From Amycolatopsis alba DSM 44262 (GTDB taxonomy: Bacteria; Actinomycetota; Actinomycetes; Mycobacteriales; Pseudonocardiaceae), in NCBI RefSeq assembly GCF_000384215.1, contig NZ_KB913032.1:1-64000 (forward strand): a stretch of 64,000 bases of DNA, read 5' to 3'. The notes below the pieces were generated by a model, which saw only the letters and a program-made list of their open reading frames with translations, made no database searches and was not told where the DNA came from. Below, in pieces: positions 2,804 through 49,507 of the stretch. Every line of letters starts with the position of its first letter. The stretch's first letter is position 1. Both the position numbers and the translations under genes were made by a program.

Positions 2804-2892
2804 GAGCCAGGGTCATCGGGCCCGGCGCTCTGCTCGCGACCATGGCCTTGAAAGCGGGTCAGAAGCCGGAATTCTGACGCGACTTGACGGAA

Positions 2893-14690: not shown

Positions 14691-14911
14691 ATGACCTATC
14701 CCGGTATCACGGTCGCCCGCCGCCAGCGCGGGTACGTCGTCGACGAACTCTGGCTCCGGGTCGGAGAAGCCGAACCCACCATCGCCGACGACGAAGCCCT
14801 GATCGCCGTGTTGCGCGCCGCGTGGTGCTGGAGCACTTCAGCCGTGTGAACGAGCGGCCACCGCCCACACTCGGCTCGTTGGCCCATCATCTGCGCCCGA
14901 CGACTACTTAA
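14691..14911 (+). pseudogene. short hypothetical coding remnant
   Basis: From ATG 14691 a frame reads MTYPGITVARRQRGYVVDEL then LRVGEAEPTIADDEALIAVLRAA and stops at 14849. The plausible continuation LEHFSRVNERPPPTLGSLAHHL is in a neighbouring frame and ends at 14911. Together they look like one short gene with a frameshift near 14825. Function not recognised. Confidence 0.35.
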
Positions 14912-27472: not shown

Positions 27473-27502
27473 CACCCGATGGTTCACGCACGGGAGGACT
27501 CG

Positions 27503-32710: not shown

Positions 32711-33214
32711 CTATCCGCAAGCACCACCGAAGGCGAAGGAGGCGAGATTCCGCGAATCATGCCGCTCGTACCAGTTGAGATCGGCCTGTCCGATCTTGGT
32801 GGTGATCGGAAGGAGTGTCTGGATGTCGTGCGTTCCCCCCGCAGGGTCGCGGCCCCAGGAGTACTCGACGGTCAGGTGAGGTGGGTAGGGAGTCACGGGA
32901 AGGCCGGGCAGAGATGCGATCAGGCGTTCCAGCGGTTCCAGCGGTTCGGGGGTGAGATACGTGCCACCCTCGGGCGTCAGCTGGGGAGTTGGCCGGAAGG
33001 TAAGAGAAATCGGCGATATCCGAGCGAAGTGGCTTGTCAGGACATCGAGCAGGGCGGGATTGAGGGAGTCCTCCTGGATGGCGTCACTCAGGCTGACGTG
33101 AGCATGAGTGACGTTCGGGCCTGAGAACATCAGTGAGGGCAAGGCACGCTGCATTCGAGGGCGAATCAGCGGTTCTAAAGCTGGGACTGGGATGACGAGG
33201 GCGGCGTGTCCCAA
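32711..33214 (-). CDS. 2H phosphoesterase / 2'-5' RNA ligase-like protein
   Basis: About 167 residues. TTG 33214 is preferred because GGAGGA lies 6 bases upstream; the start overlaps the end of the MFS gene by 40 bases. The two half-motifs of the 2H fold are present: HAHVSLSD and PPHLTVEY, each HxS/T within a beta-strand, so a cyclic-phosphodiester or RNA-end activity is likely. It closes a two-gene operon with the exporter. In a biosynthetic cluster it could process a cyclic phosphate intermediate or provide resistance; neither is shown. Confidence 0.65.
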   Translation of the reverse strand: MGHAALVIPVPALEPLIRPRMQRALPSLMFSGPNVTHAHVSLSDAIQEDSLNPALLDVLTSHFARISPISLTFRPTPQLTPEGGTYLTPEPLEPLERLIASLPGLPVTPYPPHLTVEYSWGRDPAGGTHDIQTLLPITTKIGQADLNWYERHDSRNLASFAFGGACG

Positions 33215-34504: not shown

Positions 34505-35326
34505 ATGACACAAACGCGTGAAATTCCCCAGCAAGCGGGAAGGGCTTGCGTGGCACTGGTAACGTACGGTGTCGTGTTCACAACAGTCGAGCGAGACCGT
34601 GTCCGTGACGAGTTGGTGGCGGCGGCGAAGGCCGAACCAAGGATTACAGCGGCGGGATTCGCCGGATCAAGCGCACACGGCAAAGAAGACCGCTGGTCGG
34701 ACATCGACTTGGCGCTGCGATTGGCTCCCGACGTCGACTACGACGAATTCGTCGCACACTGGACCGACTTGCTCTACCAGAAGTACAACGCGGTCACCCA
34801 CCTGGATGTGCAGGCGGGAAACACGCTGTTCAGGGTGTTCTTGCTGCCGGGCACTCTCCAAGTCGATATCGCGTTCTGGCACGACGAAGACTTCGGCGCG
34901 ACCGGGCCGAAGTTCGAGGTACTTTTCGGCGAAGCGAATGACGTCGAGAAGACGAAGACGCCCTTGGCGAGGGACCTCATCGGTTGGGCTTGGCTCTACG
35001 CGCTGCATGCCAGGTCAAGCATCGCCAGGCGGCGAGTCCGGCAGGCGGAGTACATGATCAGCGGAATGCGCGACGAGATTTTCAATCTCGCTTGCCTGCG
35101 CCACGATGTGCCTGCCACACAAGGCCGGGGCATTGACGATCTCCCCTCCGAGATGGCCGACCCGATCATGGAAGCGCTGGTGCGCTCACTGGACCCCGCC
35201 GAACTGACCCAGGCGTTCACCGCCGCATGCGAGGCTTTGCTGGCCGAGGCCGAGCACGTCGATCCGGAATACGCCGAGCGGCTCGCACCCTCACTCCGCG
35301 AGTTGGCCGCCAGCGCAAACCCGTGA
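34505..35326 (+). CDS. nucleotidyltransferase, KNTase/MNT-like
   Basis: 273 residues from ATG 34505. The nucleotidyltransferase signature is complete: GSSAHGKEDRWSDIDLALRL, the G-S...D-x-D metal site, with a third acidic residue in LQVDIAFW. The remainder is helical, like aminoglycoside adenylyltransferases. The stop overlaps the GMC start by GTGA. It may transfer a nucleotide to the pathway product (self-resistance or a protecting step) or to a biosynthetic intermediate oxidised by the GMC enzyme. Confidence 0.75.
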   Translation: MTQTREIPQQAGRACVALVTYGVVFTTVERDRVRDELVAAAKAEPRITAAGFAGSSAHGKEDRWSDIDLALRLAPDVDYDEFVAHWTDLLYQKYNAVTHLDVQAGNTLFRVFLLPGTLQVDIAFWHDEDFGATGPKFEVLFGEANDVEKTKTPLARDLIGWAWLYALHARSSIARRRVRQAEYMISGMRDEIFNLACLRHDVPATQGRGIDDLPSEMADPIMEALVRSLDPAELTQAFTAACEALLAEAEHVDPEYAERLAPSLRELAASANP

Positions 35327-36624
35327 CCGACGCGGACGTCGCGATCGTAGGTTTCGGGATCATCGGCGCGGTTCTCGCGCGCTGTCTGGCCGATCGGGGT
35401 GCTGCCGTGGTCGTTCTCGACGCCGGCTCTCCGATGACCAGCCGCGCAGGCTCGCATCTGCGCAACCTTCCGATTTCCCCGGCGGATCCAGGCTACCTCA
35501 ACGACCTCGTCAGCGTTCATCTGCGAAGAGCCACCGTCGGTTCTGCACCGACGTCGGCCATGGCGGCCGCGAGGACGACAAACCTGCTGGGCGGCATGGG
35601 CGTCCTCTGGAATTGCGTAGTCCCGCGCCTGGTCACCCAAGAACGGTGGCCAGGCATCGCCGACGGCGAATGGGACCGTCTGCATCGTCGAGCCGAAGAC
35701 CTGCTGCGGGTCGCCCCGAGCCCGACCGGCCAACGGCAAAGCTCGGTGATCTCGGCTCTTGGAGGAGCCGAGCCCGCACCGATCGCCTTCGACGGTCTAC
35801 AGTGGACCGGGCCGGCCGAAATCGCCCCCGACGTAGAGGTCGTACCCCATCGCGCGGTCCGCAAGCTGATCCGCCGGGGCGACCGTGTCATCGCAGCCGA
35901 GACCGTCGACATCGCCACAAGCAAGCCGCACACGGTCACCGCGGACAACTTCGTCATAGCGGCAGGAGGACTGCGCACCCCTGCATTGCTGTGGACATCC
36001 GGAATCGGGAGGGGCCTGCCCGTCGGCCATTACCTCACCGACCATCCTCTTTCGTACGCCCAAGTCATGCTCGACGACTTCCCCGCCGGCGACCCCGATC
36101 CGGTCGCGATCGTCCCGATGAGCGACGACCATCCGTTTCACGGCGTGCTACTCACCGATTCCCACGGCTCGCCTCTGCTCGAGGGGATCGACGAACGCAG
36201 GGTTCTTTCCCTGTACTGGTACACCGCGACAGAGCAACGACGGGACAACCGGCTCGTATTCACCGAAGCACCGACCGATCTTTTCGGACTGCCCCGGCCC
36301 ACGTTCGAGTACACCTTCACCGCGCACGACGAGGCAAAGCGTGCGGACACTCTGGCCGCTGTCACGGCTGCCGGCAAGCAGATCGGCGCTTTCGTCCCGA
36401 CCGGCAAACCCCGGAGGCTCACCGCGGGCAACTCGATGCACGTCATGGGTACCACCCGGATCGGTACCGATGGAATCGACAGTGTCACCGACGGCTACGG
36501 CCTGGTATGGGGAATGGAAAACCTCTATCTCGGAGGCACTGGGCTCATCCCGACGGCCACCGCCACCAACCCGACCCTGGCCGCAGCAGCCATCGCCGTA
36601 CGGACGGCCGAACATCTCGGCTGA
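35323..36624 (+). CDS. GMC-family FAD-dependent oxidoreductase of the biosynthetic cluster
   Basis: 433 residues from GTG 35323. FAD fold VAIVGFGIIGAVLARCLAD with VVLDAG, mid-block GGMGVLWNCVVPR, catalytic-His block SMHVMGTTRIG, and C-terminal GGTGLIPTATATNPTLAAAA. Paralogous to the enzyme at 9796 (shared GGMGVLW and WTGP blocks) but about 80 residues shorter. Such enzymes oxidise sugar or nucleoside alcohols. Translation is coupled to the nucleotidyltransferase, and a bidirectional hairpin follows before the minus-strand NRPS operon. Confidence 0.8.
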   Translation: MTDADVAIVGFGIIGAVLARCLADRGAAVVVLDAGSPMTSRAGSHLRNLPISPADPGYLNDLVSVHLRRATVGSAPTSAMAAARTTNLLGGMGVLWNCVVPRLVTQERWPGIADGEWDRLHRRAEDLLRVAPSPTGQRQSSVISALGGAEPAPIAFDGLQWTGPAEIAPDVEVVPHRAVRKLIRRGDRVIAAETVDIATSKPHTVTADNFVIAAGGLRTPALLWTSGIGRGLPVGHYLTDHPLSYAQVMLDDFPAGDPDPVAIVPMSDDHPFHGVLLTDSHGSPLLEGIDERRVLSLYWYTATEQRRDNRLVFTEAPTDLFGLPRPTFEYTFTAHDEAKRADTLAAVTAAGKQIGAFVPTGKPRRLTAGNSMHVMGTTRIGTDGIDSVTDGYGLVWGMENLYLGGTGLIPTATATNPTLAAAAIAVRTAEHLG

Positions 36625-36690: not shown

Positions 36691-36945
36691 TCATTTGCCA
36701 TGGAACCCGCGGCGCTCGGTGCACAAATCGACCAGCTCACCGAATTTGCAGGTCATGAGTTCGATCATGGTCGGGCGGAAGTCCCATGCCAGTTCGACCC
36801 TGTTGGCCAGCATCGTCGCGATCAGCGAGTTGCCACCGATGTCGAGGAGCAGGTCATCCTGCCCGACTTCCTCGATGCCGATGAGTTCTTGTACGTACCC
36901 GCCAAGGATGTCACGGGTGTCGTTCGCTGTCGTACTGTCGCTCAT
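36691..36945 (-). CDS. free-standing carrier protein (PCP/ACP)
   Basis: 84 residues from ATG 36945, overlapping the hydroxylase stop by ATGA. The phosphopantetheine site is DIGGNSLIATML, with Ser preceded by GGN. Helices on both sides have the expected length. A free carrier next to an A-T protein that has only one carrier implies a second thioester-bound building block. No second adenylation domain is present in the window, so it must be loaded in trans. Confidence 0.85.
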   Translation of the reverse strand: MSDSTTANDTRDILGGYVQELIGIEEVGQDDLLLDIGGNSLIATMLANRVELAWDFRPTMIELMTCKFGELVDLCTERRGFHGK

Positions 36946-37811
36946 CGTTCGTCCGCCTTCCACAGAACCGGGCACACCGCGGGGTCGGCGTAATCCGGGT
37001 CGCCGTTGTCGTCCTTGCGGCAGAGAAAGTCGTTGAGGTGGACCAAGCGCTTCCCGTTCCCGTCAAGGACGGAGGTGTAGCGGTTGGACTCGTCCTGCAT
37101 GTGGACCGCGAGAGCCACCCTGGGCCGGTCCGAATTGTTGGGCCTGCTGCCGTGGATCGTGCGGCAGTGATGGAAACTGACCTGACCGGCGTCCAGCACC
37201 AGCGGAACCTCGGTGAGCGGCTCGGCTCCGCGCTGGATCTTCGCCGCCACGCCTGCGAGGTCCGGCTCGTGGAAGAACTCCAGGCGGTCGTTGCCTCCCC
37301 ACCGATGGCTGCGGTCCAGGACCGTCATCGGGCCCATGTCGGAAGTGACAGGCTGGAACGGTACCCATGCCGTAATCAGGTTCCTTGACGAACAGGTCTT
37401 CCAGTAGGCGATATCCGTGTGCCAGCCGACGGTCGCGACCGAGTCGGAAACCTGCGGCGGCTTGTAGACGAGCTGATCGTGGAACAAGCGGACCTCCGCC
37501 GTGCGCGCCAGGATCGCCGCGCTGAGCGCGACCAGTGGATGCTCGACCACCATACGCAGTTGCTCGATCTGCAGCGATACGTAGTCGTTCTGGCGTAGCA
37601 CGTTTCCACGGCTGCTGTTCCAGTCGGTGCCGGCCTCGAACAACAGGACGGCATCACGCTCGCCGCTGTAATAGCGGTCGACACCGAACCTGGCGTCGTC
37701 GATGACTTCGTCTTCGACGATGCGCGGCGAGATCCACCAGCCGTGCTCTTCATAAAATCGGATGTCGTGCTCCGACGGCAGCAGCTCGAGCTGCTCCTGG
37801 GTGAGGTTCAC
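36942..37811 (-). CDS. PhyH-type Fe(II)/2-oxoglutarate oxygenase
   Basis: 289 residues from GTG 37811, overlapping the condensation gene stop by GTGA. The facial triad is visible: WHTDIAYW (HxD) and the distal His in FHHCRTIHGS. An Arg that would bind 2-oxoglutarate lies in SDRPRVALAVHMQD. It is about 40-50% identical by eye to the paralogue at 42641 (shared CSSRN/DxxTAW and SFHHCRTIHGS). It probably hydroxylates an amino acid, free or carrier-bound; given the proline-like adenylation pocket in this cluster, a proline ring position is a candidate. Confidence 0.85.
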   Translation of the reverse strand: MNLTQEQLELLPSEHDIRFYEEHGWWISPRIVEDEVIDDARFGVDRYYSGERDAVLLFEAGTDWNSSRGNVLRQNDYVSLQIEQLRMVVEHPLVALSAAILARTAEVRLFHDQLVYKPPQVSDSVATVGWHTDIAYWKTCSSRNLITAWVPFQPVTSDMGPMTVLDRSHRWGGNDRLEFFHEPDLAGVAAKIQRGAEPLTEVPLVLDAGQVSFHHCRTIHGSRPNNSDRPRVALAVHMQDESNRYTSVLDGNGKRLVHLNDFLCRKDDNGDPDYADPAVCPVLWKADER

Positions 37812-39304
37812 GGTGCGCCCCCTTCCCACCGCGGGCGGTGCCACACGCCGACGGGACTGATCGCGTCGACCGGACCGATCTCGGTCATTCTCTTCAATCT
37901 CCCCGACGGACCGAACCCACCCGCCGGGGCCGGGGCCGGGTCGGGAACAGGGTTGGGGAGCTCGAGTTCGGGTGCGACCGACTCGGGCGCGTCGCACAAC
38001 GCCACGAGTATCTCGACATAGGCGCGGATCGCAGCGCGGATCGACTCGTCGTCGAACGAGGTCGCGGAGTAGAGCACCGAGAGGGTGAGGTGCGTGCCGG
38101 TCTCGCGGACGAAGTACGTCAGGTCGGCCGATGTGGCGGCGGGGATCGTGCTCACGTCGCGGCCGTCATCGATGTACAGGCCGGTCACGGCGCATCCGGC
38201 CAGGGCCAAGCCCTCCATCGGGTATCGGTCCATCTGAAACATCACCGCGGGCGCGGCGGCCCAGCCGTACTCGCGCTCGACCTGGCCCGCCAGTATCGCG
38301 TACGGCAGTCGCTGGCGGTCGAGCGCGGACAGCGTGCGCTCCGCCGTGCGCATCAGGCATTCCAGCAGCGACAAGGCCCCGTCGAGGTCGGTGTTGAGCA
38401 ACAGCGGGTTGTAATGAGCGCCGAGTACCTCCGCGCTGTCGGCGGTCGGGCGGCTCGCCGCCAAGGTGCCGACCACGACGTTCGCGCATTTCGACCAACG
38501 CTCGATCAGCACTTCGAACGCGGTCAGCAGCACGACGAACACCGATACCCGCATCTGTTTGGCCAGCGCGGTCAACTCGGCGGTCAACTGGCGCGGCAGT
38601 GCCTCGACCTGTCTACGGACTTCACCCACCGTTCGGTGAACGCCGAGCAGCGCGGGCCGCTCCGTCGCCCCGCGCAGCCGGTCTTTCCACCAGTTCAGCT
38701 CCACGTCGACGGCCGGTCCGCTCAGCCACTCCCGCTGACGCCGTGCCTGTTCCAGACACTCGGTCCGGGGTGGGTTCGGCCTGAAGGGTTCGCCACGCAC
38801 AGTCGACGCGTAGCAGCGAGTGAGATGCTCTCGCAGCACGAAGATCGACCAGCCGTCACCCACGATATGGTGCAGCGACAGCAGTAGAATGTGCCTGCCC
38901 GGCCCGAGATGGAGCAGGGAAGCCCGGATCGGCGCTCCGGCCGTGAGATCGAACGGCTTAACGCGATCCTCGCGGATGAGCCGCACCGCCTCGGGCTCGT
39001 CGGCGGAGCGCGGCGTCAGCTCAACGGCAGCCAGCGCGACTTCGGCCGGGCCGACCTGGGCGACGACGTTGTCCCCGACCTTGCGGTAGACCGTCCGCAG
39101 TGGCTCGTGCGTGCGCACCAGACTCCGGAACGCCTCGGCGAGCGCGGCGACATCGAGCGGGCCGTCCACCGCGATCGCATAGCTCAGATTGAGCGCTCCG
39201 GGGTCGGGTTCACGTTGGTGCAGCTCCCACATCTGTTGCTGTGCCACGGTGAGCGGCCCTCGCCGGGCAGGGGCGGGCGCGGGCGACCGTGTCGTGCTGT
39301 TCAC
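37808..39304 (-). CDS. free-standing NRPS condensation domain
   Basis: 498 residues from GTG 39304, overlapping the stop of the A-T-MT gene. The active-site motif is intact (HHIVGDGWS), along with the early LTVAQQQMWELHQ motif and later blocks NPLLLNTDL and YAILAGQVEREYG. The C-terminal 50 residues are Pro-rich. It should form an amide or ester between a carrier-bound donor and acceptor, probably the prolyl-type unit on the adjacent A-T protein and the group on the free carrier. Confidence 0.85.
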   Translation of the reverse strand: MNSTTRSPAPAPARRGPLTVAQQQMWELHQREPDPGALNLSYAIAVDGPLDVAALAEAFRSLVRTHEPLRTVYRKVGDNVVAQVGPAEVALAAVELTPRSADEPEAVRLIREDRVKPFDLTAGAPIRASLLHLGPGRHILLLSLHHIVGDGWSIFVLREHLTRCYASTVRGEPFRPNPPRTECLEQARRQREWLSGPAVDVELNWWKDRLRGATERPALLGVHRTVGEVRRQVEALPRQLTAELTALAKQMRVSVFVVLLTAFEVLIERWSKCANVVVGTLAASRPTADSAEVLGAHYNPLLLNTDLDGALSLLECLMRTAERTLSALDRQRLPYAILAGQVEREYGWAAAPAVMFQMDRYPMEGLALAGCAVTGLYIDDGRDVSTIPAATSADLTYFVRETGTHLTLSVLYSATSFDDESIRAAIRAYVEILVALCDAPESVAPELELPNPVPDPAPAPAGGFGPSGRLKRMTEIGPVDAISPVGVWHRPRWEGGAP

Positions 39305-42300
39305 GGGCGCACCGCGTAGACGAAGTGCACGACGGTACCGGCGTGCAGCGGATTCTGCTCCACTTCGACATGGAAGCCCTTGGACTTCAACAACGTGACG
39401 ATCCGGTCGAGTCGCCCCGCCAGGTCATGTGCCTCTACGACGACCTGGTCGATCTTGCCCCAGTCCTCGTCCGCGACGCCCTCGAGTACCTCCAGCTCAG
39501 CCTTTTGCACGTCGATCTTGAGCAGGTCGACATGCTCGATCCCGGATTCGGCGAGAGCCGTGCTGAGCGTTTTGCGCGCACAGGTGTACGTCACGGCCGC
39601 CAGGCGCTCGTCCAGATACTGATGTGACCCGGCCAGCCGCGCGCCCTCGCCACCGCCGTTCAGATGAGCACTGTTGCCGAGGATCGCCGACAACAGTGCT
39701 CGCTCCTGGGCGTCGTCCGGATGGAACGACGACATACCGGTGAGATCGGGATAGTAGGTGAACCGGGCGGAGTCCGCCTTTGCTCCGAGCGCGAACGCAT
39801 GGAGCTCGACGCCGTCCAGCTCGCCGGTGGTACGCCGCAGCGCATCGAACAGCGGCGGGCACGGCTCGAACGCCAGCACCCGCAGCGCGGGCGACTTCGA
39901 CTTCGCGTACAACGTGAACAGGCCGATGTGCGCCCCGACGTCGATCACCACGCCGGTTTCCGGGTACCGCACGCCACCCCGGTCGTAGGTCCTGTGCTCG
40001 AAGACGTCTTGGTACAGGTACTCGGTTTCGGAGGGTTGCGGCGAGTACACCTTCAGCCCACCGGGTAGCTCGACCGCTTGAACCGTGGCGTTTCCGGACG
40101 GAGCCTCGGCGGGATTCCGGTCGTCCGCCTCGTCGCGCCCACGGGCAGCGTCGATCTCGACGGCCAAGGCCGCGACCGTCGTGCCACGCAACAGAGTGCG
40201 AAGCGGGAGCGAGATCGAGAACAGCTCGTTGAGCTGCGCGACGACGTGGATGCCGACGAGTGAATGCCCACCCAGCTCGATGAAGTCCGAGTCCCGGCCG
40301 ACGCTGTCGAGCCCGAGTGCCGTCGCCCAGACCTTGGCGACGGTCTCCTCGGTGTCGCCCTCCGCGACGGCCGTCGCGGAGGCGGCGGCGCGCGGCAGGG
40401 GTGGCAGCTCGCGCCGGTTCACCTTTCCGGTCAGGGTGAGCGGCAGGGCGTCGGTGAACACGAACCCCGATCTCGCCGGGACCATGTGTCCGGGCAGGTC
40501 CTCCAGCATGCGGCGGCGCAAATCGACGGGGTCCAGCTCGTGGTCGGCGACGACGAACGCGGCCAGCTGCTTGCCCAGCGCTTCGGTCTCGTGCACCACG
40601 GCCGCCGCCATCCGCACGCCCGGCTGCCTGGCCAGTACCGTCTCGACCTCGCCGAGCTCGATCCGATAACCGCGGATCTTGACCTGGTCGTCGTAGCGGC
40701 CGAGAAACTCGATTTCGCCGTCCTCGGTGAACCGTCCGCAGTCCCCCGTGCGGTAGAGCCGCTCGCCCTCGGTGCCGAACGGGTCAGGAATGAACCGCCC
40801 GGCGTGCGCCTCCTCGTCCAGGTAGCCCTCGGCCGGGCCGATGCCCGCGACGTGGATCTCGCCGGGTACGCCGGGCGGTACCGGCCGCGACCACGGGTCC
40901 AGAACGTGCACGCGCACGTTGCGCACCGGCTTGCCGATCGGTGGCGCGGCAGGCCACCGCATGCTCGGCCCAGTGAGCTCGAACGCGGTCACGACGTGGG
41001 TCTCCGTCGGCCCGTACTGGTTGTCTAGCGAGCAATCGAGCTGGTGGAACAGGCGGCGGATCGGCATCGAGATGTGCAACTGCTCGCCTGCCACGACGAT
41101 CTCGCGCAGCGAGCTCATCGCTCGCTGTTCCAGGGTCGCCGTCACCGCCATCTGGTTCAGCGCCACCGGAGGCAGGAACAGCCTGGCGATGCCGTAGCGC
41201 TCGACGTGCTCGGGCAGCAGCGAGACGTCGTCCCGGACCTCGTCCGACGCGACGACGAGGCTGCCGCCGAAGCCGAGTGTCGAGAAGATCTCTTGGAAGC
41301 TGACGTCGAAGCCGATCGACGTGCGCTGCAGCGTTCGCCTACCGGCTGGGTCCTCTCCCCGCTCGCGCTGCCAGCGCACCAGGTCGACGAGCCGCCGATG
41401 CTCCACGACCGTCCCCTTCGGACGGCCGGTCGACCCAGACGTGAACAACACGTACAGCGGATCGGCGGCGGTGACGCCCGAATCGGGGTCGGTCTCGTCG
41501 GCGTCGGCGATCCGCTCGGCGTCGCGGTCGATACTGACCACCTCCGGGCCCGGTGCGCCGAACCGGTCCGACAGCGACGAATCGGTGACCACTAGCGCCA
41601 TCCCGGAGTCCTCGACCGTCATCCGGTTCCGCGAGTCGGGAAACGTCGGCACGATCGGCACCACCGCGGCGCCGGACTTGAGCACGCCGAGCGTGCTGAT
41701 GGTCAGCTCGGGCGTTGCTGGAACGCACAGGCCGACGCGCGTGCCAGGCCCGGCGCCCAGCGATCGCAGATGGTTGGCCAGCCGGTTAGCACGCGCGTTC
41801 AGCTCGCCGTAGCTGATCACCTGGTCGCCGTAGACGAGCGCTTCCCGATCGGGTCGCGCCCGCGCCTCGAACTCGAAAAGCCGGTGCAGGGTTACTCCGT
41901 CGGACTCCCTGTGTTCGCCCTGTCCCCAGGCGGACAACGCCGTACGATCTTCGTCGAGCAGGTAGTCCACCGCACGGACCGACGTTCCCAGCGCGGAACG
42001 GCCTTGTTCGGCGAAAGCGAGGACATGTCCGCCGAACCGGGCGATCGTCGCCTCGGTGTGCACGTTGGCGTTGTACTCCAGTTCCAGCGCGTCGGCGGCG
42101 ACCATCACCGTGACGTCGTTGCGCAGATCGGAGATCGTGCTGTGCCGACCCTCGACACGCAGGACGACGGAGAACAGCGGATGCCGGTCGGTGACCTCCT
42201 CGACGCCGAGCGCCGCCCACAGCTCGTCGATCGTGAAATCCGTCCTCGACTCACTCTCGGCGATCACCTCGGCCGCGCCGTCGACTAGCTGGCCGAACGG

Positions 42301-42627
42301 CGTCGCCGGGTCGACCTCGAGCAGCATCGGCAGTGCGGTGTCGACCTCGCCGGTTCCGGAAGGCGGCGACCCGACGACGATCCCTTCCACCTCGGCGCCG
42401 CCCCGGTACCGATGCAGCACGGCGGCCGTCGCGGCAAGGAACACCGCGTGCGTCTCGGCGGCGGGGACCACCACGTTCGAAGGCAGCCGTACGGTCATGC
42501 TCTTGCGGCGGTACACGCTGCTCCGCTTGCGAAACAGCGGCGGACCGGCCTCCGCTCCCCTGCGGACCAGCCGCTCGGCCCACCAGGCGTTGTCGCCGCG
42601 CAATAGCGTGCTCGTCGTCTCGGTCAA
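39301..42627 (-). CDS. NRPS: partial C - A (proline-like code) - T - FkbM methyltransferase
   Basis: 1108 residues from TTG 42627 (AAAGGA 8 bases upstream). Residues 1-230 are the C-terminal half of a condensation domain lacking HHxxxDG. The A domain (about 245-740) has LFTSGSTGRPKGT, SIGFDVSFQEIF, NQYGPTET, YRTGDCGRF and LTGKVNRREL. Aligned to GrsA, pocket residues are D235 V236 Q239 F278 V299 A301 Q322 V330 V331, close to the proline code DVQLIAHVV. The carrier site is LGGHSLVGI (about 787). The last 220 residues are an FkbM-type SAM methyltransferase (VIDVGAHIGLFTLYA, VDLLKIDVQKAELEVLEG). No thioesterase or reductase is present, so release is in trans. Confidence 0.85.
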   Translation of the reverse strand: MTETTSTLLRGDNAWWAERLVRRGAEAGPPLFRKRSSVYRRKSMTVRLPSNVVVPAAETHAVFLAATAAVLHRYRGGAEVEGIVVGSPPSGTGEVDTALPMLLEVDPATPFGQLVDGAAEVIAESESRTDFTIDELWAALGVEEVTDRHPLFSVVLRVEGRHSTISDLRNDVTVMVAADALELEYNANVHTEATIARFGGHVLAFAEQGRSALGTSVRAVDYLLDEDRTALSAWGQGEHRESDGVTLHRLFEFEARARPDREALVYGDQVISYGELNARANRLANHLRSLGAGPGTRVGLCVPATPELTISTLGVLKSGAAVVPIVPTFPDSRNRMTVEDSGMALVVTDSSLSDRFGAPGPEVVSIDRDAERIADADETDPDSGVTAADPLYVLFTSGSTGRPKGTVVEHRRLVDLVRWQRERGEDPAGRRTLQRTSIGFDVSFQEIFSTLGFGGSLVVASDEVRDDVSLLPEHVERYGIARLFLPPVALNQMAVTATLEQRAMSSLREIVVAGEQLHISMPIRRLFHQLDCSLDNQYGPTETHVVTAFELTGPSMRWPAAPPIGKPVRNVRVHVLDPWSRPVPPGVPGEIHVAGIGPAEGYLDEEAHAGRFIPDPFGTEGERLYRTGDCGRFTEDGEIEFLGRYDDQVKIRGYRIELGEVETVLARQPGVRMAAAVVHETEALGKQLAAFVVADHELDPVDLRRRMLEDLPGHMVPARSGFVFTDALPLTLTGKVNRRELPPLPRAAASATAVAEGDTEETVAKVWATALGLDSVGRDSDFIELGGHSLVGIHVVAQLNELFSISLPLRTLLRGTTVAALAVEIDAARGRDEADDRNPAEAPSGNATVQAVELPGGLKVYSPQPSETEYLYQDVFEHRTYDRGGVRYPETGVVIDVGAHIGLFTLYAKSKSPALRVLAFEPCPPLFDALRRTTGELDGVELHAFALGAKADSARFTYYPDLTGMSSFHPDDAQERALLSAILGNSAHLNGGGEGARLAGSHQYLDERLAAVTYTCARKTLSTALAESGIEHVDLLKIDVQKAELEVLEGVADEDWGKIDQVVVEAHDLAGRLDRIVTLLKSKGFHVEVEQNPLHAGTVVHFVYAVRP

Positions 42628-42640
42628 GGCGCAATTCCTT

Positions 42641-43501
42641 TCAAACGGGCCAGAGAACCGGGCAGATGTCTGGGTCGGCGTAGTCAGGCAACCCCGCGTC
42701 GTCCTTGCGGCACAACAGATCATTGATGTGCACGGTCCGGTTCCTGGACGAGTCGGTGTGCGGCACGTAGCGGTTGGCCCGGTCCTGGAAGTGCAGCGCC
42801 AGCGCCACCCGGTCTCGAGAGCTGCGGTTGGCGTCACTGCCGTGGATCGTGCGGCAATGGTGGAAGCTGACCTGTCCCCGTTTGATCCGCAGCGGCACCT
42901 TGTGCACCGGTGCCGCGCCCGCGAAGGACCGCTCCAGCTCCGTCATGTCGTGCTCGGTGAAGGTGCGCATCCACTCTGTGTCGTCGCGACGGTGACTACC
43001 GTCCACAAAGGAGATCGCCCCGATGTCGTCGTCGCAATCCTGGAAGGGAATCCAGGCGGTGAGCATGTCCCGCGAGGAGCAGGTCTGCCAGTAAGCCGCG
43101 TCCACGTGCCAACCCACGGTCGATTCGCTCGGAGCCATCCCGGCCGGCTTGCAGATCAGTTGGTCGTGGAAAAGCCGGATCTGGTCGGTCCCGGCAAGCC
43201 GCGCCGCGATCCCGGCGATCACCGGCAGGTCGACCAGCTGACGGAGATCGTCGTTCTGCAGCGACACGTAATCGTTGAGACGGATGACATCGCCGTGCTG
43301 CGGCCGCCAATCCAGATATCCGCCGGTGATCAGCAGTTCATGGTCACGCTCGCCCGCGTAGTGCCGCTCAGCTCCCAGCTGCGCGGTCTCCAGCACTTCG
43401 TCGGGGATGACCACGTCGCTGGTCCACCAGCCATGCTCGGCATAAAAGGCGACATCCTCCGCAGTGGGCAGCAGATCGCCGGTCGCCGTCGTCGGTGTCA
43501 T
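42641..43501 (-). CDS. second PhyH-type Fe(II)/2-oxoglutarate oxygenase
   Basis: 286 residues, ATG overlapping the ThDP-enzyme stop. The iron-binding motif is WHVDAAYW and the distal His is in FHHCRTIHGS; the probable 2-oxoglutarate Arg is in SSRDRVALALHFQD. Paralogue of the enzyme at 36942. Two related oxygenases in one short pathway suggest two oxidations on the same residue, or one hydroxylation followed by a further oxidation. Confidence 0.85.
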   Translation of the reverse strand: MTPTTATGDLLPTAEDVAFYAEHGWWTSDVVIPDEVLETAQLGAERHYAGERDHELLITGGYLDWRPQHGDVIRLNDYVSLQNDDLRQLVDLPVIAGIAARLAGTDQIRLFHDQLICKPAGMAPSESTVGWHVDAAYWQTCSSRDMLTAWIPFQDCDDDIGAISFVDGSHRRDDTEWMRTFTEHDMTELERSFAGAAPVHKVPLRIKRGQVSFHHCRTIHGSDANRSSRDRVALALHFQDRANRYVPHTDSSRNRTVHINDLLCRKDDAGLPDYADPDICPVLWPV

Positions 43502-45249
43502 CGGGCCTCCTCAATCGGCGCGCGGAACTCCATGGCGGTGATCGGCGCGCCGAACGGGACGTTGGGATAGACGTTCAGTTCGGTCGGTACCCGCACGTGC
43601 AGCAAAGCGGGTTCCCTATCGTCCCGCCACAACCAGCGCAGAGCGTCGTCCACCACGTCCGGCTCGGACACCGACGCGGCGGACATCCCGTAGGCCTCAG
43701 CCACCTTGACGAAATCGGGCGCGTCGTAGCCGTGAACGGCCGAGGGATACCTGCCGTCGAAAACCGCCTCTTGCAGTTGACGGACCGATCCGTGGCAGCC
43801 GTTGTCGACGACCACGATCTTCACCGGCAGGTGGTTGCGCATCACTGTCTGCAGTTCCTGGATGTTGAACTGGAACGCGCCGTCGCCGACGAACAGAACG
43901 ACCGGGCGGTTCGTGGCCTCGGCGACACCGATCGCGGCAGGGAACGCCCAGCCGCACGGCCCCATCCCGAGCGCGGGCATGAACCGCTGCCCCTCCGCCG
44001 GCTGGATCGACTGGCAGGCCCACCACAGGTGCTGCCCGTCGTCGACGACGATCGCCGCGGCGCCTGCCGACGCGGCGGAGAGCCGGCGCACAAGTGAATT
44101 CGGGTTGATGCCCGGAGAATCGGGCAGCTCGGCGGTATCCGGCCAAGCGGCGCCGAGCCCGGCCAGGTGCTCCGCCCACGCCGTCCGGTCAGGGAACCGC
44201 CGTTCACGGGCCACGGGCACCGCCGCGTCGAGGAACGCGCCCAGGTCGGCCGTGATCGTCCGGGCGCCGCGGACCCGCCGCATCTCCCCAGGGTCGCAGT
44301 CGACCTGGAACGTGGTGCGGCCGCGGCCCCAAGCGGTGACGTCCGCCCCGATCGTGCCGAAGTCGAGCCTGGTGCCCAGCGCGACGACCAAGTCCGCCTC
44401 CGCGACAGCGTGGTTGACCCAGCGGTTGCCGTACATACCGATCATGCCCAGCCGCAGCGGGTGGGCCGCGGGGAGCACGTCGAGCGCCATCACCGACGCG
44501 GCGACCGGCACGGCGAGCTCCTCGATGAAGGTCCTGGTCCGACCAGCCGCCCGCGCGGCGTGGGCCCCGCCGCCTATCAGCAAGAGAGGCCGTTGCGCGG
44601 AGGCGACGGCGTCCAGCATTTCGTCGATGGCCTCGGCCTCCGTGAACTCCGGTGGCCGCGGCACGGACGGGTTCGGCTCGGCGTCGGCGAGGACGGGCAT
44701 GGTCTGCACGTCCGCCGGGAGCTCCACCAGCACCGGCCCTGGGCGCCCGCTCGCGGCCAGCGTCATCGCGCGGTCCAGCAACTCCGGCAGCTGTGCGCCG
44801 GACCGCGCCCGCCAGGCCGCCTTGGTCACCGGCTCGGCCATCGACAGCACGTCGCACTCCTGAAAACCGAACTGGCGCACAGGCCTGTCGCCCTTGAGCA
44901 GGTAGCTTTGGACCTGGCCGACCAGGAACACCGCGGGGACGGAGTCGAGGTAGGCACTGCCGATTGCCGTCAGCATGTTGGTCGCCCCCGGCCCCGCGGT
45001 CGCGATCGCCACCGCAGGCGCTCCGGTGTACCGACCGACGCCGTCCGCGGCGAAGGCGACAGCCTGTTCGTGGTGCATGGTGACGATCCGCACCCCTCCG
45101 TCGCGGTGGATGGCGTCGAGCAGGGCGGCGATCATTCCACCGGGCAGGGTGAAGATCTGGGAGATCTCGTTGGCGCGGAGCCAGCTGACGACGTAATCGC
45201 TGACCGTCCGGGCTGTCGTCCCGGTCTTTGTGGGTGGGGCGTCGATCAT
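43498..45249 (-). CDS. ThDP-dependent acetolactate synthase-like enzyme
   Basis: 583 residues from ATG 45249 (GGAG 9 bases upstream). N-terminal Pyr domain IFTLPGGMIAALLDAI with the catalytic Glu in MHHEQAVAFAADG, central domain RPLLLIGGGAHAA, and C-terminal ThDP/Mg motif GDGAFQFNIQELQ...VVVDN. The usual housekeeping ALS partner (ilvN) is absent, so this is a pathway enzyme. Relatives condense pyruvate-like donors with aldehydes or keto acids (acyloin formation), or add carbon to amines as in carboxyethylarginine synthase. It may make the acyl unit carried by the free PCP. Confidence 0.8.
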   Translation of the reverse strand: MIDAPPTKTGTTARTVSDYVVSWLRANEISQIFTLPGGMIAALLDAIHRDGGVRIVTMHHEQAVAFAADGVGRYTGAPAVAIATAGPGATNMLTAIGSAYLDSVPAVFLVGQVQSYLLKGDRPVRQFGFQECDVLSMAEPVTKAAWRARSGAQLPELLDRAMTLAASGRPGPVLVELPADVQTMPVLADAEPNPSVPRPPEFTEAEAIDEMLDAVASAQRPLLLIGGGAHAARAAGRTRTFIEELAVPVAASVMALDVLPAAHPLRLGMIGMYGNRWVNHAVAEADLVVALGTRLDFGTIGADVTAWGRGRTTFQVDCDPGEMRRVRGARTITADLGAFLDAAVPVARERRFPDRTAWAEHLAGLGAAWPDTAELPDSPGINPNSLVRRLSAASAGAAAIVVDDGQHLWWACQSIQPAEGQRFMPALGMGPCGWAFPAAIGVAEATNRPVVLFVGDGAFQFNIQELQTVMRNHLPVKIVVVDNGCHGSVRQLQEAVFDGRYPSAVHGYDAPDFVKVAEAYGMSAASVSEPDVVDDALRWLWRDDREPALLHVRVPTELNVYPNVPFGAPITAMEFRAPIEEAR

Positions 45250-45273
45250 AAGCACGGTCTCCTCAGGTCTTCT

Positions 45274-46506
45274 CTAGCCGGACAGCCGCTGTGCGAGCTC
45301 CGCCGAGGCGGGGACCGTCGGATCGACCCGGCACGACAATGAGCTGTAGTGGGCCGCCCGCTCGCGATCCCCCAGTTCGTCGTGGATCCACGCCAGGTAA
45401 TAGGCGGCGCGGGCGACCGGTAGACCGCCGAGCGGGATCGCCCGCGCGAACGCCTCCGCCGCCTCCCCAAGCCGGCGGGCGGCGAGGAGCGCCTGCCCGC
45501 GCGCGGCCCAGGTCCGTTGATCGTTGGGGCTCAGTTCCACCAGCCGCGCGGTCGCTTCGACAGCCTGCTCTTCGTCACCCGAGCGCAGATGCGTCTTGGC
45601 GATCGTCTCGTAGAGCGGAAAAGCGTGGTCAATCCATGCCAGCTCACGCAGCGGACCGGTCACTTCCGCCTCGGCCGTCTTTTGGTGTGCCTCGGCCAGT
45701 TCCAGTGCCCGGAGCGCGCCGTCGACGTCGCCGCGCACGAACGGGACGTACGCAGTCGCACGGTGGACCGTCTGCGCGGCGAGGTTCTCGGCGAACGGAT
45801 CGGCCTCCCACTCGCCGGAGGCCGCGAGTGCCAGCTCGGCGGCCTCGTGGAGGGCAGGCGTATCGGCGCCACGCCGTCCATTGCGCACGACCACGTAGTT
45901 GGCCGCGATCATCCTCACTCTGGCGCCGTGCGACCGGTCACGGGCGAGCTCCAGTGCCCGGCGCTCCAGCACCGCCGGATCATGACGACGGCGCACGAAA
46001 ACGGTCAGCTCCGCGATCGCGCACTCTCGGCTGAACTCGTGTGCCGTTGGATCGGCCGCGTCCATTCCGAGCACCCGCGCCGCTTCCTTGGGATACCCCA
46101 GTCTCAGCATCAAGTCGCTCGCGTTCGCGCGCTCCGGCGGCTCGAGTTCGGCGGGGTCGGCGACCAGTTCGGCCACCCGGCGCCACAGATCGCCGGCCAG
46201 GTCGCCGGGAAAGTCGGCCATCGTGTCGCTCAGCGCGTCGACTCGGTTGTGCGAAGCGACTGCGAGCACCCGTAAGATCGGCGGTGGATTGGTGTTGAAA
46301 TGCGGCAACTCCACCGATCTCCCGGCGACGTACCGCGCACGGGCGTGGGTCGACTCGGCGTGCTTCGCCGAGGCCGGGCCAGGGTCGGCCAATCCTCGAT
46401 ATACCCCGCAAGCCACCGGGACTCCAGCGGTGGTCAACGCACGCAGGCGCGCGGCCAGCGGTTTAGAGCCCGCAGGAGGCCGGTATGCCGGTGGTCCAGT
46501 GATCAC
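45274..46506 (-). CDS. TPR-containing protein of unknown function
   Basis: About 410 residues from GTG 46506 (GGGAG 5 bases upstream). The first 95 residues (ITGPPAYRPPAGSKPL, GRSVELPHFNTNPPPIL) are unlike known domains. The remainder is a helical-repeat solenoid whose last repeats are TPR-like (AVEATARLVELSPNDQRTW, AAEAFARAIPLGGLPVA). No enzymatic motif. It is the second gene of the operon, right after the 22-residue peptide gene, and could bind that peptide or scaffold the free-standing NRPS parts. Related TPR proteins also serve as regulators. Confidence 0.6.
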   Translation of the reverse strand: MITGPPAYRPPAGSKPLAARLRALTTAGVPVACGVYRGLADPGPASAKHAESTHARARYVAGRSVELPHFNTNPPPILRVLAVASHNRVDALSDTMADFPGDLAGDLWRRVAELVADPAELEPPERANASDLMLRLGYPKEAARVLGMDAADPTAHEFSRECAIAELTVFVRRRHDPAVLERRALELARDRSHGARVRMIAANYVVVRNGRRGADTPALHEAAELALAASGEWEADPFAENLAAQTVHRATAYVPFVRGDVDGALRALELAEAHQKTAEAEVTGPLRELAWIDHAFPLYETIAKTHLRSGDEEQAVEATARLVELSPNDQRTWAARGQALLAARRLGEAAEAFARAIPLGGLPVARAAYYLAWIHDELGDRERAAHYSSLSCRVDPTVPASAELAQRLSG

Positions 46507-46573
46507 GAGAACTCCCAGGTTCCAACCGTTTGGTTCCACAGCGCGGCCCATTCATCCGGTGCACCGCCTTGAC

Positions 46574-46605
46574 CGGGGGCGCCACCTGCGCGGATGACGC
46601 CCCCG
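46574..46605 (-). terminator. hairpin between the peptide gene and the TPR gene, possible attenuator
   Basis: CGGGGGCG (46574-46581) and CGCCCCCG (46598-46605) form a perfect 8-bp stem with a 16-nt loop, just 7 bases after the peptide stop. There is no U-tract. It could partly terminate transcription so that the peptide is made in excess of the enzymes, or act as an attenuator. Confidence 0.5.
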
Positions 46606-46611
46606 TGCGCG

Positions 46612-46680
46612 TCAGCGGTGCTGCCACTCGCCGAGGGTCTCGAACTCGAACTCCTCGGCTACCATCTCGATGCTCTCCAT
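46612..46680 (-). CDS. 22-residue peptide heading the biosynthetic operon
   Basis: ATG 46680 is preceded by a long purine run, GGAGGAAGGGGGTG, with 6 bases to the start: the strongest ribosome binding site in the region. The peptide starts MESIEM, continues with an acidic aromatic stretch (EEFEFE) and ends LGEWQHR before TGA at 46612. It carries seven Glu (charge about -5), two Phe and one Trp. It may be a precursor or scaffold peptide, a leader peptide controlling downstream genes, or chance; the binding site argues it is translated. It is the first gene of a minus-strand operon running to 36691. Confidence 0.55.
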   Translation of the reverse strand: MESIEMVAEEFEFETLGEWQHR

Positions 46681-47079
46681 GACTTTCACCCCCTTCCTCC
46701 ATTGTGGACTATTTGACGGACAGACGTGTCCGCCACGAATTCAGGGAGGATGAGCGAATAGATTCGTTGCCCCAGTGCGAACTTGAGTCAATATTCGACC
46801 GTACACACGACATACGATCACGACAAGTGGTCATTCGAGAACTACGAGATCTACTGTAGACAAAGACAGGTATGAGTCGATTATGGATCCGCGAGCTGAT
46901 CGAGAATCCGGAATTCGTATCATGATCACTCAACGTCATAACACTGCTCAGCTAGACCCGGACGGCTCATTGACGGACCTGACATTGCCTGATTCAGTGA
47001 ATCGGGGGCTTCGCGAGTACATCTTCGCAAAAACACACCGCGCTCAGGACGGTCACGAAGGGAGGCGTCGCGATCCACG
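46681..47079. promoter_or_regulatory. divergent control region of the biosynthetic cluster
   Basis: About 400 bases, AT-richer than the flanks, between the peptide gene (minus) and the condensation-like gene (plus). A near-palindrome CGGACA-GACG-TGTCCG lies at 46717-46732, about 37 bases upstream of the peptide start. TTGACG at 46971 could be a -35 for the rightward gene. Short open frames on both strands here lack ribosome binding sites. This is the only plausible common promoter region for both arms of the cluster. Confidence 0.5.
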
Positions 47080-48411
47080 ATGGCCGACGTACCGAAGACC
47101 GCACGCTCCAGCGCCGCGGGCGAGCGGGTATACCCAGCGAGCCAAGGACAACTGCGCTTTGCCGAGGGCGACGCCCAGCTTGGCAACCGCTCGGTTCTGA
47201 ACGTCGCGCTGCGCATCAGCATCGCGGGTCCGCTCGACCCGGCCGCGCTGGCTACCGCAGTATCGGTTCTCGTCGAGCGCAGACATGTGCTCAGGACACG
47301 ATTCCGCCGCGACGGCACCGGGTTCAGCCAGCAGGTCATGCCTGCCGTGCCGGTGGAACTGCCGGTCACCGATCTCCCGACGGACGACGGCGCAGTGTCC
47401 GTGTGGTGCGAACGACAGGCCATGGAACCGTTCGACCTGCACCATGGGAAAGTCGCGCGATTCGCGCTGGCCCGTGCGGGCGCGGATCGGTGGGTACTGA
47501 TGTTCGTGCAGCACCACATCGTCACGGACGCGATGTCACTGAGCATCCTCATGGCGGACCTGGCCGAAGGCTACCGAGCCGCGGTTTTAGGCGTCGCCGA
47601 AAACCGCGGGCAACCTGTGCAGCTGGCGGAGTTCGTCAGGTGGGAACAGGAGCATTTGGCCAGCGAGGAGGGGCGGAGGTCCATCGAGTTCTGGCGCACG
47701 GAACTCGATGGCGCGGAACTGTCGATACCGTTGCCGGGCGACCGGCCTCGCCCAGCTGTGCTGAGCGGGCATGGGACTTTACAACCCTTCGACGTCGACA
47801 CGAACCTTGCGCGCGAGCTCACCCGCTGGGCCGAAGCGCACCACGTCACGCTCTACGCGGTGCTGTTGACAGCTTTCGGCCAGCTGTTGCGCGGCCTTGT
47901 GAACCGGAACGAGGTGGTGGTGGTCGGCGCGTTCCCGAATCGAACCCGACAGCAGTTCGAGGACCTCGCCGGCCCGCTCACCAACTCATTGGCACTGCGC
48001 CTGCCTGGCCATCCGGACCACACCATCGGCGAAACCGTTCTGGGCGTAGCACGTCACCTATGGACGCTGGCAGACCATGTCACCGTGCCGTTCTCGGTCG
48101 TGCTCAACGAGGCAGACGTCCTCACGAGGCCGGGGGCGGACCAATTCCCGCAGGTGTGGTTCTCCCTCCACCCCGATCCGGGACGACGGCTGGCCCTACC
48201 AGGTCTGCGGGCCACCGCCGAAGAGATCGCCATCCCCGGTGTGCGTTCCGATCTCGGTGTCCTGGCGATACCCGACGTGAAAGGCATCCGACTATGGACC
48301 GAAGCAGCGCACTACATCGCGCCGCAGACCGTCTCACGCTGGATGACCGACTACGAGCGTCTGCTGCGACAGTTGGTCGACCACCCCGCCACACAGCTGC
48401 GCGAATGGTGA
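47080..48411 (+). CDS. condensation-like protein with altered HHxxxDG motif
   Basis: 443 residues from ATG 47080; GGGAGG lies 14 bases upstream, rather far. The fold is a full condensation domain: VYPASQGQLRFAEG, the active-site block HHIVTDAMS, the DFxxG-like region FEDLAGPLTNSLALRL, and a final latch region (PFSVVLNEADVL). The motif reads HHxxxDA instead of HHxxxDG, and the usual Trp is Met. The two His and the Asp are kept, so it could still acylate. It may use a non-carrier acceptor, as other free C-like enzymes do. It is co-oriented with the flavin monooxygenase gene. Confidence 0.75.
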   Translation: MADVPKTARSSAAGERVYPASQGQLRFAEGDAQLGNRSVLNVALRISIAGPLDPAALATAVSVLVERRHVLRTRFRRDGTGFSQQVMPAVPVELPVTDLPTDDGAVSVWCERQAMEPFDLHHGKVARFALARAGADRWVLMFVQHHIVTDAMSLSILMADLAEGYRAAVLGVAENRGQPVQLAEFVRWEQEHLASEEGRRSIEFWRTELDGAELSIPLPGDRPRPAVLSGHGTLQPFDVDTNLARELTRWAEAHHVTLYAVLLTAFGQLLRGLVNRNEVVVVGAFPNRTRQQFEDLAGPLTNSLALRLPGHPDHTIGETVLGVARHLWTLADHVTVPFSVVLNEADVLTRPGADQFPQVWFSLHPDPGRRLALPGLRATAEEIAIPGVRSDLGVLAIPDVKGIRLWTEAAHYIAPQTVSRWMTDYERLLRQLVDHPATQLREW

Positions 48412-48448: not shown

Positions 48449-49507
48449 ATGCACGTCGGCTTCGAGGCGGCCTTTCAGCACAGAGGCAGCTATCCTGATG
48501 CGGACTTCATGCGCAAGGAACTGCACGCCTGCGTCCAAGCCGAGACACTCGGCTTCGACTCCATCTGGCTGACCGAGCACCACTTCAGTAACTACGGCCT
48601 AATCGCCGACCCGCTCCAAGCCTTGTCTTATCTGGCCGCGCGCACGAGCCGTGTTCGCCTCGGCACTGCGGTTCTCGTGCTTCCATGGCACGATCCGGTC
48701 CGGCTTGCCGAACAAATCATCCTTGCCGATCACTTGTCCGGCGGGCGGCTCGTTCTCGGCCTGGGCCGGGGGTTGGCCAAGGACGAGTTCGAAGGCTTTC
48801 GCGTGCCGCTCGACGAGTCCCGTGCCCGTTTCGCCGAATGCGCCGAGTTGGTGCTGCCTGCGCTTGAAACCGGTTTTATCGAAGGTGGCGAGACAACTCG
48901 CCAGCCTCGGCGCGAACTGCGGCCAAGGCCGCTGAAGTCTTTCCAGGGAAGGGTGTTCAGCGCGTCGGTGTCGCCGGAATCCAGTCCGCTGGTCGCCAAG
49001 ATGGGATTGGGCATGATGCTCATCATCTTCAAACCCCTTCACCTCATGGAGCAGGATGTCCAGCGTTACCGCGGCACCTGGTCGGACCTGCACGGCATGG
49101 CCAGCGAACCACCCGGCCCGCTGCTGTCCGTCGTCGTGGTAGTCGACAAAAGCACCGACCGGGCGTTGGAGATTGCCAAAAAGCACAACGACCGAAGTCA
49201 TGACGTCGCGGTGGCACACTACGGGATGGCGGACAAGGACTTTGGCAGGACGGAAGGATACGAGTTCTACCAAAGCATGCGGCCTGTGGCACGTACCGAC
49301 CTCGACCTGACTCCCAGCACCGTTGTGCACGGCACACCGGATCAAGTGCTAGAACAGTTGGAGACCTTGCACCGCACGTTCGACCTTCAGGGCCTTCTGA
49401 CGATCTTCCACGGCATTCCGGACCAAGACGGTCACGACAGCCTGCACACCTTCGCCGAATATTGCCTGCCCGAACTCAAGAGTTGGCCAGCGGAATCCAC
49501 CTTTTGA
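48449..49507 (+). CDS. luciferase-like (LLM) flavin-dependent monooxygenase
   Basis: 352 residues from ATG 48449, 37 bases after the condensation-like gene. TIM-barrel pattern of bacterial luciferase/alkanal monooxygenases: CVQAETLGFDSIWLTEHHFSN, LAARTSRVRLGTAVLVLPW, DHLSGGRLVLGLGRG, and a C-terminal VHGTPDQVLEQLE. Group members use FMNH2 from a separate reductase. In natural-product clusters they hydroxylate carrier-bound acids or amines. It probably tailors the same product as the two PhyH enzymes. Confidence 0.8.
   Translation: MHVGFEAAFQHRGSYPDADFMRKELHACVQAETLGFDSIWLTEHHFSNYGLIADPLQALSYLAARTSRVRLGTAVLVLPWHDPVRLAEQIILADHLSGGRLVLGLGRGLAKDEFEGFRVPLDESRARFAECAELVLPALETGFIEGGETTRQPRRELRPRPLKSFQGRVFSASVSPESSPLVAKMGLGMMLIIFKPLHLMEQDVQRYRGTWSDLHGMASEPPGPLLSVVVVVDKSTDRALEIAKKHNDRSHDVAVAHYGMADKDFGRTEGYEFYQSMRPVARTDLDLTPSTVVHGTPDQVLEQLETLHRTFDLQGLLTIFHGIPDQDGHDSLHTFAEYCLPELKSWPAESTF

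What the first reader, a model, noticed from the sequence alone, without database searches (positions are those of the whole stretch)
46612..46680. A 22-codon peptide gene with an exceptional ribosome binding site heads the NRPS-type operon
The sequence shows ATG 46680 behind GGAGGAAGGGGGTG, a peptide starting MESIEM and ending LGEWQHR, a stop at 46612 and a hairpin 7 bases later. It is followed by a TPR protein gene and then the ThDP/oxygenase/NRPS genes, most overlapping or nearly so. A tiny, acidic, highly translated first gene is expected for a precursor or scaffold peptide or a leader peptide, and is unusual at the head of an NRPS operon. A hybrid ribosomal/nonribosomal pathway, with the TPR protein binding the peptide, would be new to me.
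Basis: partly seen in the sequence, partly recalled or inferred. Interest (0 to 1): 0.75.

Follow-up and report, generated by a model that had tools for sequence, protein, structure and literature searches.

The report
Tiny scaffold-like peptide with TPR partner
The 22-codon gene at the head of this antibiotic-type gene cluster looks real: related tiny acidic peptides lie just before the same kind of partner-protein gene in three other bacterial genomes and one gene away in a fourth, which suggests a ribosome-made starting or scaffold peptide that serves several different natural-product pathways, here one with nonribosomal-type enzymes.

Summary
Observation confirmed. MESIEMVAEEFEFETLGEWQHR (46680..46612, minus) has a strong Shine-Dalgarno, a hairpin 7 bases after its stop, then the 410-aa TPR gene. 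It is conserved: related 20-23-aa acidic peptides lie directly before TPR homologues in two genomes of the same family (G114, G213) and a Burkholderiales-labelled MAG (L007), and one gene before it in Streptomyces flavotricini (L008), there in tandem (three complete identical copies, a fourth cut by an N-run). A profile built without the window ranks the window peptide first of 2298 small ORF starts (E 2.1e-8). In 390 family genomes the full peptide occurs in three, each time beside this TPR gene (all three supplied profile rows). A clade of peptide-less TPR proteins is nested among the peptide-bearing ones.

Neighbouring enzymes change (2OG oxygenase; Mur ligase; ThiF and hydrolase; here ThDP, two PhyH, NRPS parts); peptide and TPR recur. 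Best reading: a ribosomal precursor/scaffold peptide read by the TPR superhelix, a RiPP-like module with no PEARL nearby. That the NRPS builds on the peptide is plausible but unproven. Attenuation is disfavoured. No translation, binding or product data exist here.

The parts
46612..46680 (-). 22-codon gene of the acidic precursor/scaffold-like peptide MESIEMVAEEFEFETLGEWQHR
   Evidence: homologues in L007, L008, L013/L041, L014/L042; leave-one-out E 2.1e-8
46687..46700 (-). Shine-Dalgarno stretch GGAGGAAGGGGGTG; holds an alternative GTG start at 46689
   Evidence: sequence
46572..46608 (-). hairpin after the peptide stop, no T-run; like-placed hairpins of different sequence in L007, L013, L014, and a hairpin after the last L008 copy but none marked after an internal L008 copy
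   Evidence: single-base-shuffle z: window -1.6, L007 -3.3, L013 -2.0, L014 -4.6, last L008 copy -4.1, internal L008 copy -0.2
45274..46506 (-). 410-aa TPR protein, predicted all-helical; presumed binding partner
43498..45255 (-). ThDP enzyme of the acetolactate-synthase superfamily
   Evidence: the NCBIfam models listed score below their cut-offs
42641..43501 (-). PhyH-type Fe(II)/2OG oxygenase 1
39301..42837 (-). NRPS protein: partial condensation domain in which no HHxxxDG was found, A, T, FkbM methyltransferase (longest ORF; true start probably later)
37808..39304 (-). free-standing condensation domain with HHIVGDG
36942..37997 (-). PhyH-type oxygenase 2 (longest ORF; start probably near 37811)
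35227..36624 (+). GMC/pyranose-oxidase-like oxidoreductase, probably same cluster
33175..34479 (-). MFS exporter; 62% and 57% identical to the MFS proteins beside peptide and TPR in G114 (L041) and G213 (L042)
47080..48411 (+). free-standing condensation domain (HHIVTDA), divergent from the peptide gene; membership of the cluster inferred
48449..49507 (+). luciferase-like monooxygenase, divergent side; membership inferred

Best explanation
The ORF encodes a ribosomally made precursor or scaffold peptide. Its conserved acidic N-terminal part (M..[I/V]..[V/I]A.E[F/Y], probably an amphipathic helix) docks in the groove of the TPR protein, and its variable C-terminal end (here LGEWQHR) is offered to the tailoring enzymes of the cluster. 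The hairpin behind the stop probably raises peptide message over enzyme message, as is common for peptide precursors (recalled). The modified end is then released and exported, probably by the MFS protein. Shown: the gene, its conservation, its link to this TPR family, the predicted helical TPR fold. Inferred: translation, binding, modification, release, export. In this genome the modifying set would include PhyH oxygenases, a ThDP enzyme and NRPS parts; whether the NRPS works on the peptide is open.
For: Same peptide family directly upstream of TPR homologues in L007, L013, L014, and in tandem one gene upstream in L008. Leave-one-out: window E 2.1e-8, L007 4.9e-7, L013 7.8e-14, L014 8.3e-10, L008 0.035, each rank 1 among the small ORFs of its locus. 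Full-length profile hits in 3 of 390 family genomes, each beside the TPR gene. Tree: 30 peptide-less rows form one clade (support 100/98) nested among peptide-bearing ones. Net charge -5 or -6 in all 5; summed helical moment of residues 2-15 reached by 1 of 5000 shuffles. Tailoring or export genes beside the pair elsewhere: 2OG oxygenase (L041, L042), LysE (L041), MFS (L041, L042, L008), ThiF, hydrolase, flavin reductase (L008), Mur ligase (L007). Precedent in kind: BhaC1/AmmC1.
Against: No translation, binding or product data. 30 of the 33 TPR-positive family genomes have no full-length peptide, so the TPR protein can serve without it. No enzyme diagnostic of a known RiPP class was recognised among the window genes scanned. 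The L008 peptide is placed by sequence only weakly, and there a hydrolase gene lies between it and the TPR gene. Singly, the window peptide's helical moment is not significant (0.23 of shuffles reach it). The TPR protein is not net positive (48 K/R, 54 D/E), and docking was not modelled. All three genomes with hits supplied rows of that profile, so the count shows specificity only; the leave-one-out test is the independent one. Distant TPR relatives (L050, L083, L084, L086, L087, L097) lack the profile peptide.
Confidence: 0.64

Rival explanations
1. The peptide is an unmodified partner of the TPR protein: an intracellular regulator, folding or assembly factor, or a signal read by a Rap-like TPR receptor.
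For: The TPR fold resembles LGN and Rap peptide receptors; the N-terminal part of the peptide looks better conserved than the C-terminus; TPR proteins without the peptide exist.
Against: By eye there is no export signal on the peptide (no program was run), and Pfam shows no DNA-binding domain in the TPR protein; identical tandem copies in L008 and changing tailoring genes fit a substrate better.
Confidence: 0.2
2. Transcription-attenuation or translation-coupling leader ORF whose hairpin controls the operon.
For: Short first ORF with a hairpin directly behind its stop in window, L007, L013, L014.
Against: Amino-acid sequence conserved across deep TPR branches and, by its label, a second phylum; no run of codons for one amino acid; no T-run; no Rfam match at E 1 in 45000-48000; three complete identical copies in L008.
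Confidence: 0.07
3. Two pathways share an operon: peptide and TPR protein (and MFS) make a RiPP-like product with one or both oxygenases, while the NRPS and ThDP genes make something else or only a building block.
For: No homologue of the window's ThDP or C proteins was found at E 1e-5 in L007, L008, L041 or L042; only AMP-binding enzymes lie some kb away in L007 and L041.
Against: Genes downstream of the TPR gene overlap or nearly do, which suggests one unit.
Confidence: 0.09

Closest known systems
Pearlin pathways (ammosamide, bha): acidic scaffold peptides AmmA/BhaA with TPR proteins AmmC1/BhaC1 and AmmC2 (PMC12424672, PMC9850906, PMC11002830; passages seen)
   Same: Acidic scaffold peptide; a TPR domain modelled to hold it; the peptide end is worked on and released.
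   Different: Those use PEARL ligases and longer scaffolds (BhaA-Ala-Trp is numbered to Trp41); BhaC1 is an FMN enzyme with residue numbers to at least 654. Here no PEARL hit lies near the TPR gene, the peptide is 22 aa and the TPR protein 410 aa. Sequence kinship to BhaC1, AmmC1 or AmmC2 was not tested.
PEARL-NRPS pathway sna of Stackebrandtia (PMC11212132, listing and start of abstract only)
   Same: Joins an enzyme family of scaffold-peptide pathways with an NRPS.
   Different: Depends on a PEARL; I saw nothing about a short scaffold like this one.
ThiF-type RiPPs (microcin C and related kinds; PMC12250964, passages)
   Same: L008 has a ThiF-family gene beside tandem short peptide genes.
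   Different: No ThiF match among the window ORFs scanned; in the review the terms TPR and tetratricopeptide occur 0 times.
Biphenomycin-type MNIO clusters with a TPR-containing arginase (PMC12257519, PMC12707348; passages)
   Same: Precursor peptide, MFS exporter and a TPR-containing protein in one cluster.
   Different: There the TPR-containing protein is an arginase; no arginase or MNIO match in the window ORFs scanned.
RRNPP/Rap peptide receptors
   Same: TPR superhelix of similar fold.
   Different: No HTH by Pfam, biosynthetic neighbourhood; the peptide does not look like an exported signal (by eye).

Membership tests
RiPP (general) | Ribosomal precursor peptide gene in the cluster | tested here: inconclusive
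   Conserved ORF with Shine-Dalgarno; translation and precursor role not shown
RiPP (general) | Conserved N-terminal leader, variable C-terminal core | tested here: inconclusive
   Five peptides fit by eye; too few to test
RiPP (general) | An enzyme modifies the peptide | not testable with these tools
   needs co-expression and mass spectrometry
Pearlin | PEARL (PF04738) in the cluster | tested here: not met
   6 of 7 genomes have PF04738 hits, at other contigs or far from the TPR locus; in G000 they lie at 6.9 Mb
Pearlin | TPR protein homologous to BhaC1, AmmC1 or AmmC2 | not tested
   their sequences were not fetched
Attenuation leader peptide | Run of codons for the regulated amino acid | tested here: not met
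   sequence
Attenuation leader peptide | Intrinsic terminator with T-run | tested here: not met
   hairpin without T-run; terminators without T-runs exist in actinobacteria (recalled)
RRNPP signalling | Receptor with HTH or Rap-type role and exported pro-peptide | tested here: inconclusive
   No HTH by Pfam, fold similar to Rap; no signal-peptide program was run
Named NCBIfam precursor family | Match to a curated model | tested here: not met
   0 families at E 1 for the window, L007, L014 and L008 peptides and the L050 ORF (the L013 peptide was not submitted)

The most novel reading that the evidence does not exclude
A hybrid ribosomal/nonribosomal assembly line: the TPR protein holds a 22-residue ribosomal scaffold while free-standing condensation domains join an NRPS-activated unit to its C-terminal end, PhyH oxygenases tailor it, and the product is clipped off. 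The TPR family would then be a leader-reader, standing in for RREs, that serves many chemistries (2OG, ThiF, Mur ligase, perhaps Asn synthase).
Probability: 0.28. Interest if true: 0.88.

Novelty: new variant of a known kind. Interest (0 to 1): 0.7.

Why it matters
It gives a concrete, small handle (20-23-aa peptide, about 410-aa TPR protein, hairpin behind the peptide gene) to find clusters that mining by precursor or by enzyme would easily miss, because the peptide is so short and the TPR proteins carry only general names. If TPR proteins serve as leader-readers for unlike chemistries, a general question in peptide natural products (what recognises a precursor where no RRE is found) becomes testable. 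If the NRPS acts on the peptide, it would be a rare hybrid of the two ways of making peptides.

Tried and rejected
Considered and set aside: chance ORF; attenuator; pearlin proper; presence of the family on plasmids (no match for the TPR protein or the L008 peptide in 72,556 plasmid records). The first window PhyH has relatives at 42-47% identity in the five listed of 31 plasmid records, three of which I looked at and found in unlike clusters; the ThDP protein has relatives at about 37% in the five listed of 1654 records. Neither was informative. Structure and PDB sequence searches gave general TPR folds; residues 1-118 are barely tested by them. The proline-like reading of the A domain (D-V-Q-F-V-A-Q-V-V-K, by eye, code recalled) is weak and carries no weight here.

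Led nowhere or weak: a genus search around G452 gave 2 of 343 (the genus is unnamed, Streptomyces is my inference), the phylum draw 1 of 396 (own genome only), the class draw 2 of 364 (own and G118). The distant TPR relatives L050, L083 and L097 carry other short ORFs that do not match the profile. Partial profile hits in 47 other genomes (E 0.003 to 0.9) were treated as noise. Left out of the tree: four TPR-positive genomes with broken-up hits (G272, G274, G277, G289), the short proteins P0027 and P0028, and the weak relatives L084, L086, L087 and L097.

Full report
What is there. On the minus strand, ATG 46680 opens a 22-codon frame, MESIEMVAEEFEFETLGEWQHR, that stops at 46612. GGAGGAAGGGGGTG lies six bases before the ATG. 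A GTG inside it (46689) sits six bases behind GGAGG and could start a 25-residue form. A hairpin begins seven bases behind the stop, without a T-run. The TPR gene follows from GTG 46506 (410 aa), then ThDP, PhyH, an NRPS protein (partial C, A, T, FkbM), a C domain and a second PhyH; several of these ORFs overlap. A divergent C domain and a luciferase-like enzyme lie on the other side, a GMC oxidase and an MFS exporter beyond the end.

Is it conserved? A TPR alignment (A1) brought four loci from 84,980 species genomes. Directly before the TPR gene, L007 (MAG labelled Burkholderiales) has MDFIDQVALEYASDCSSEWSHI. In 390 genomes of the window's family, 33 have the TPR protein at E 1e-20; G114 (L013) and G213 (L014) have MDSIEQVAVEFAHETLSEMPHVL and MEDIARIAEEFAHETLSEMPHLL just before it. 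A profile scan of the small ORFs of loci L007 to L050 pointed to one more: Streptomyces flavotricini L008, MQFVEIVAEEFEALNNIEYA, three complete identical copies in tandem plus one cut by an N-run, each complete copy with GGAGG before it, between a ThiF gene and a hydrolase gene that precedes the TPR gene. The other two loci (L009, L010) have no such peptide.

Is that more than chance? Leaving each peptide out of the profile in turn, the left-out one was the top ORF of its locus every time: window E 2.1e-8 (2298 small ORF starts), L007 4.9e-7, L013 7.8e-14, L014 8.3e-10, L008 0.035. L008 is thus weak by sequence and rests on position and tandem copies. Searching the 390 family genomes with the four-peptide profile gave three full-length hits (E below 1e-11), in G000, G114 and G213, each beside the TPR gene; 50 of 390 genomes had any hit at E 1, the rest partial. 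All three genomes supplied rows of that profile, so this shows specificity, not fresh discovery. The peptides are too short and too far apart for a firm synonymous test: for L013 against L014, the pair with most shared residues, differences by codon position are 4, 4 and 7 over 22 codons, and 4 of 15 shared residues use different codons.

The TPR tree. Of 60 rows, the five peptide-bearing TPRs fall on four branches; the peptide-less loci (28 rows, two pairs of them identical, plus P0023 and P0026) form one clade with support 100/98, sister to L013/L014. Leaving aside the distant L050 and L083 rows, all five rows outside that clade whose surroundings could be read have the peptide: 5 of 5. These rows were partly found through the peptide's neighbourhood being read, not through the peptide itself; the context of the metagenome rows is unknown. 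The root is drawn at the midpoint only. Loss of the peptide in one clade is the simplest reading. Weaker relatives outside the tree (L084, L086, L087, L097) and L050 and L083 do not have the profile peptide.

What the partners tell. L041 and L042 (the larger stretches of G114 and G213) share the peptide, the TPR gene, a 170-aa 2OG-Fe(II) oxygenase (62% identity) and a divergent MFS exporter that is 62% and 57% identical to the window's MFS protein at 33175. L041 adds a LysE exporter and, about 5 kb from the peptide, an AMP-binding enzyme. L007 has a Mur-ligase-type ORF behind the TPR gene and an AMP-binding enzyme about 9 kb off. L008 has ThiF, hydrolase, MFS, flavin-reductase and PNPOx-like genes. 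So the constant part is peptide plus TPR, with an MFS protein on the same locus in window (12 kb away), L041, L042 and L008; no likeness to the window's MFS was found in L007 (not all of its ORFs were scanned with Pfam). The chemistry varies. With the window's own proteins as queries, no ThDP or C-domain homologue was found in L007, L008, L041 or L042.

How it most likely works. The peptide is made in excess, docks by its N-terminal helix in the TPR groove, and its C-terminal end is modified, released and exported. All these steps are inferred. That the NRPS parts act on the peptide rests only on their standing in one apparent operon.

Novelty. In the listings and passages I saw from ten searches of the held papers there was no description of this peptide or of this peptide-TPR pair; most subscription papers are not held. 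NCBIfam has no model for the four peptides submitted. In 5.8 billion proteins a search found 29 members of the TPR family proper (P0002 to P0030; 36 proteins at E 1e-10 in all). That is a lower bound: a capped set of candidates was scored, and family members seen are not all among them.

Noticed in passing
L007 (JADZDA010000079.1), whole locus: A peptide-TPR pair (TPR 62% identical to the window's) in a MAG labelled Burkholderiales; a TctC-type gene on the same locus fits that label (my inference), so horizontal transfer is possible.
   Followed up: partly
L050:3260-3397 and 14587-15639: Locus of the window's own genus with a distant TPR relative, ThiF, a QhpG-like flavin enzyme and a 44-45-codon ORF ending CEYCYGA with a strong Shine-Dalgarno: a likely separate RiPP-type cluster.
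   Followed up: partly
L083:4167-4328 and 5893-7734: TPR relative with MFS, an asparagine-synthase-type gene and a 53-codon ORF before the MFS gene; possible further precursor.
   Followed up: partly
L097, ORF starting at 10309 (minus): 29-codon ORF MSYESWESLADEVEISTGAADCWVCLVDA with a strong Shine-Dalgarno, upstream of a distant TPR relative; AMP-binding, aminotransferase and MFS genes nearby.
   Followed up: partly
window 27479-30373: 964-aa protein with nucleoside-phosphorylase, NB-ARC and TPR matches, a defence- or signalling-type architecture.
   Followed up: no
L093 (Burkholderia stagnalis plasmid), 1-3070: DUF692/MNIO gene beside a short hypothetical ORF and a tetratricopeptide repeat gene, another RiPP-like grouping.
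   Followed up: no
Peptide-less TPR loci in genera g34 and g51 (for example L043, L047): The TPR protein is found in many genomes of these genera without the peptide; its role there is unexplained.
   Followed up: partly
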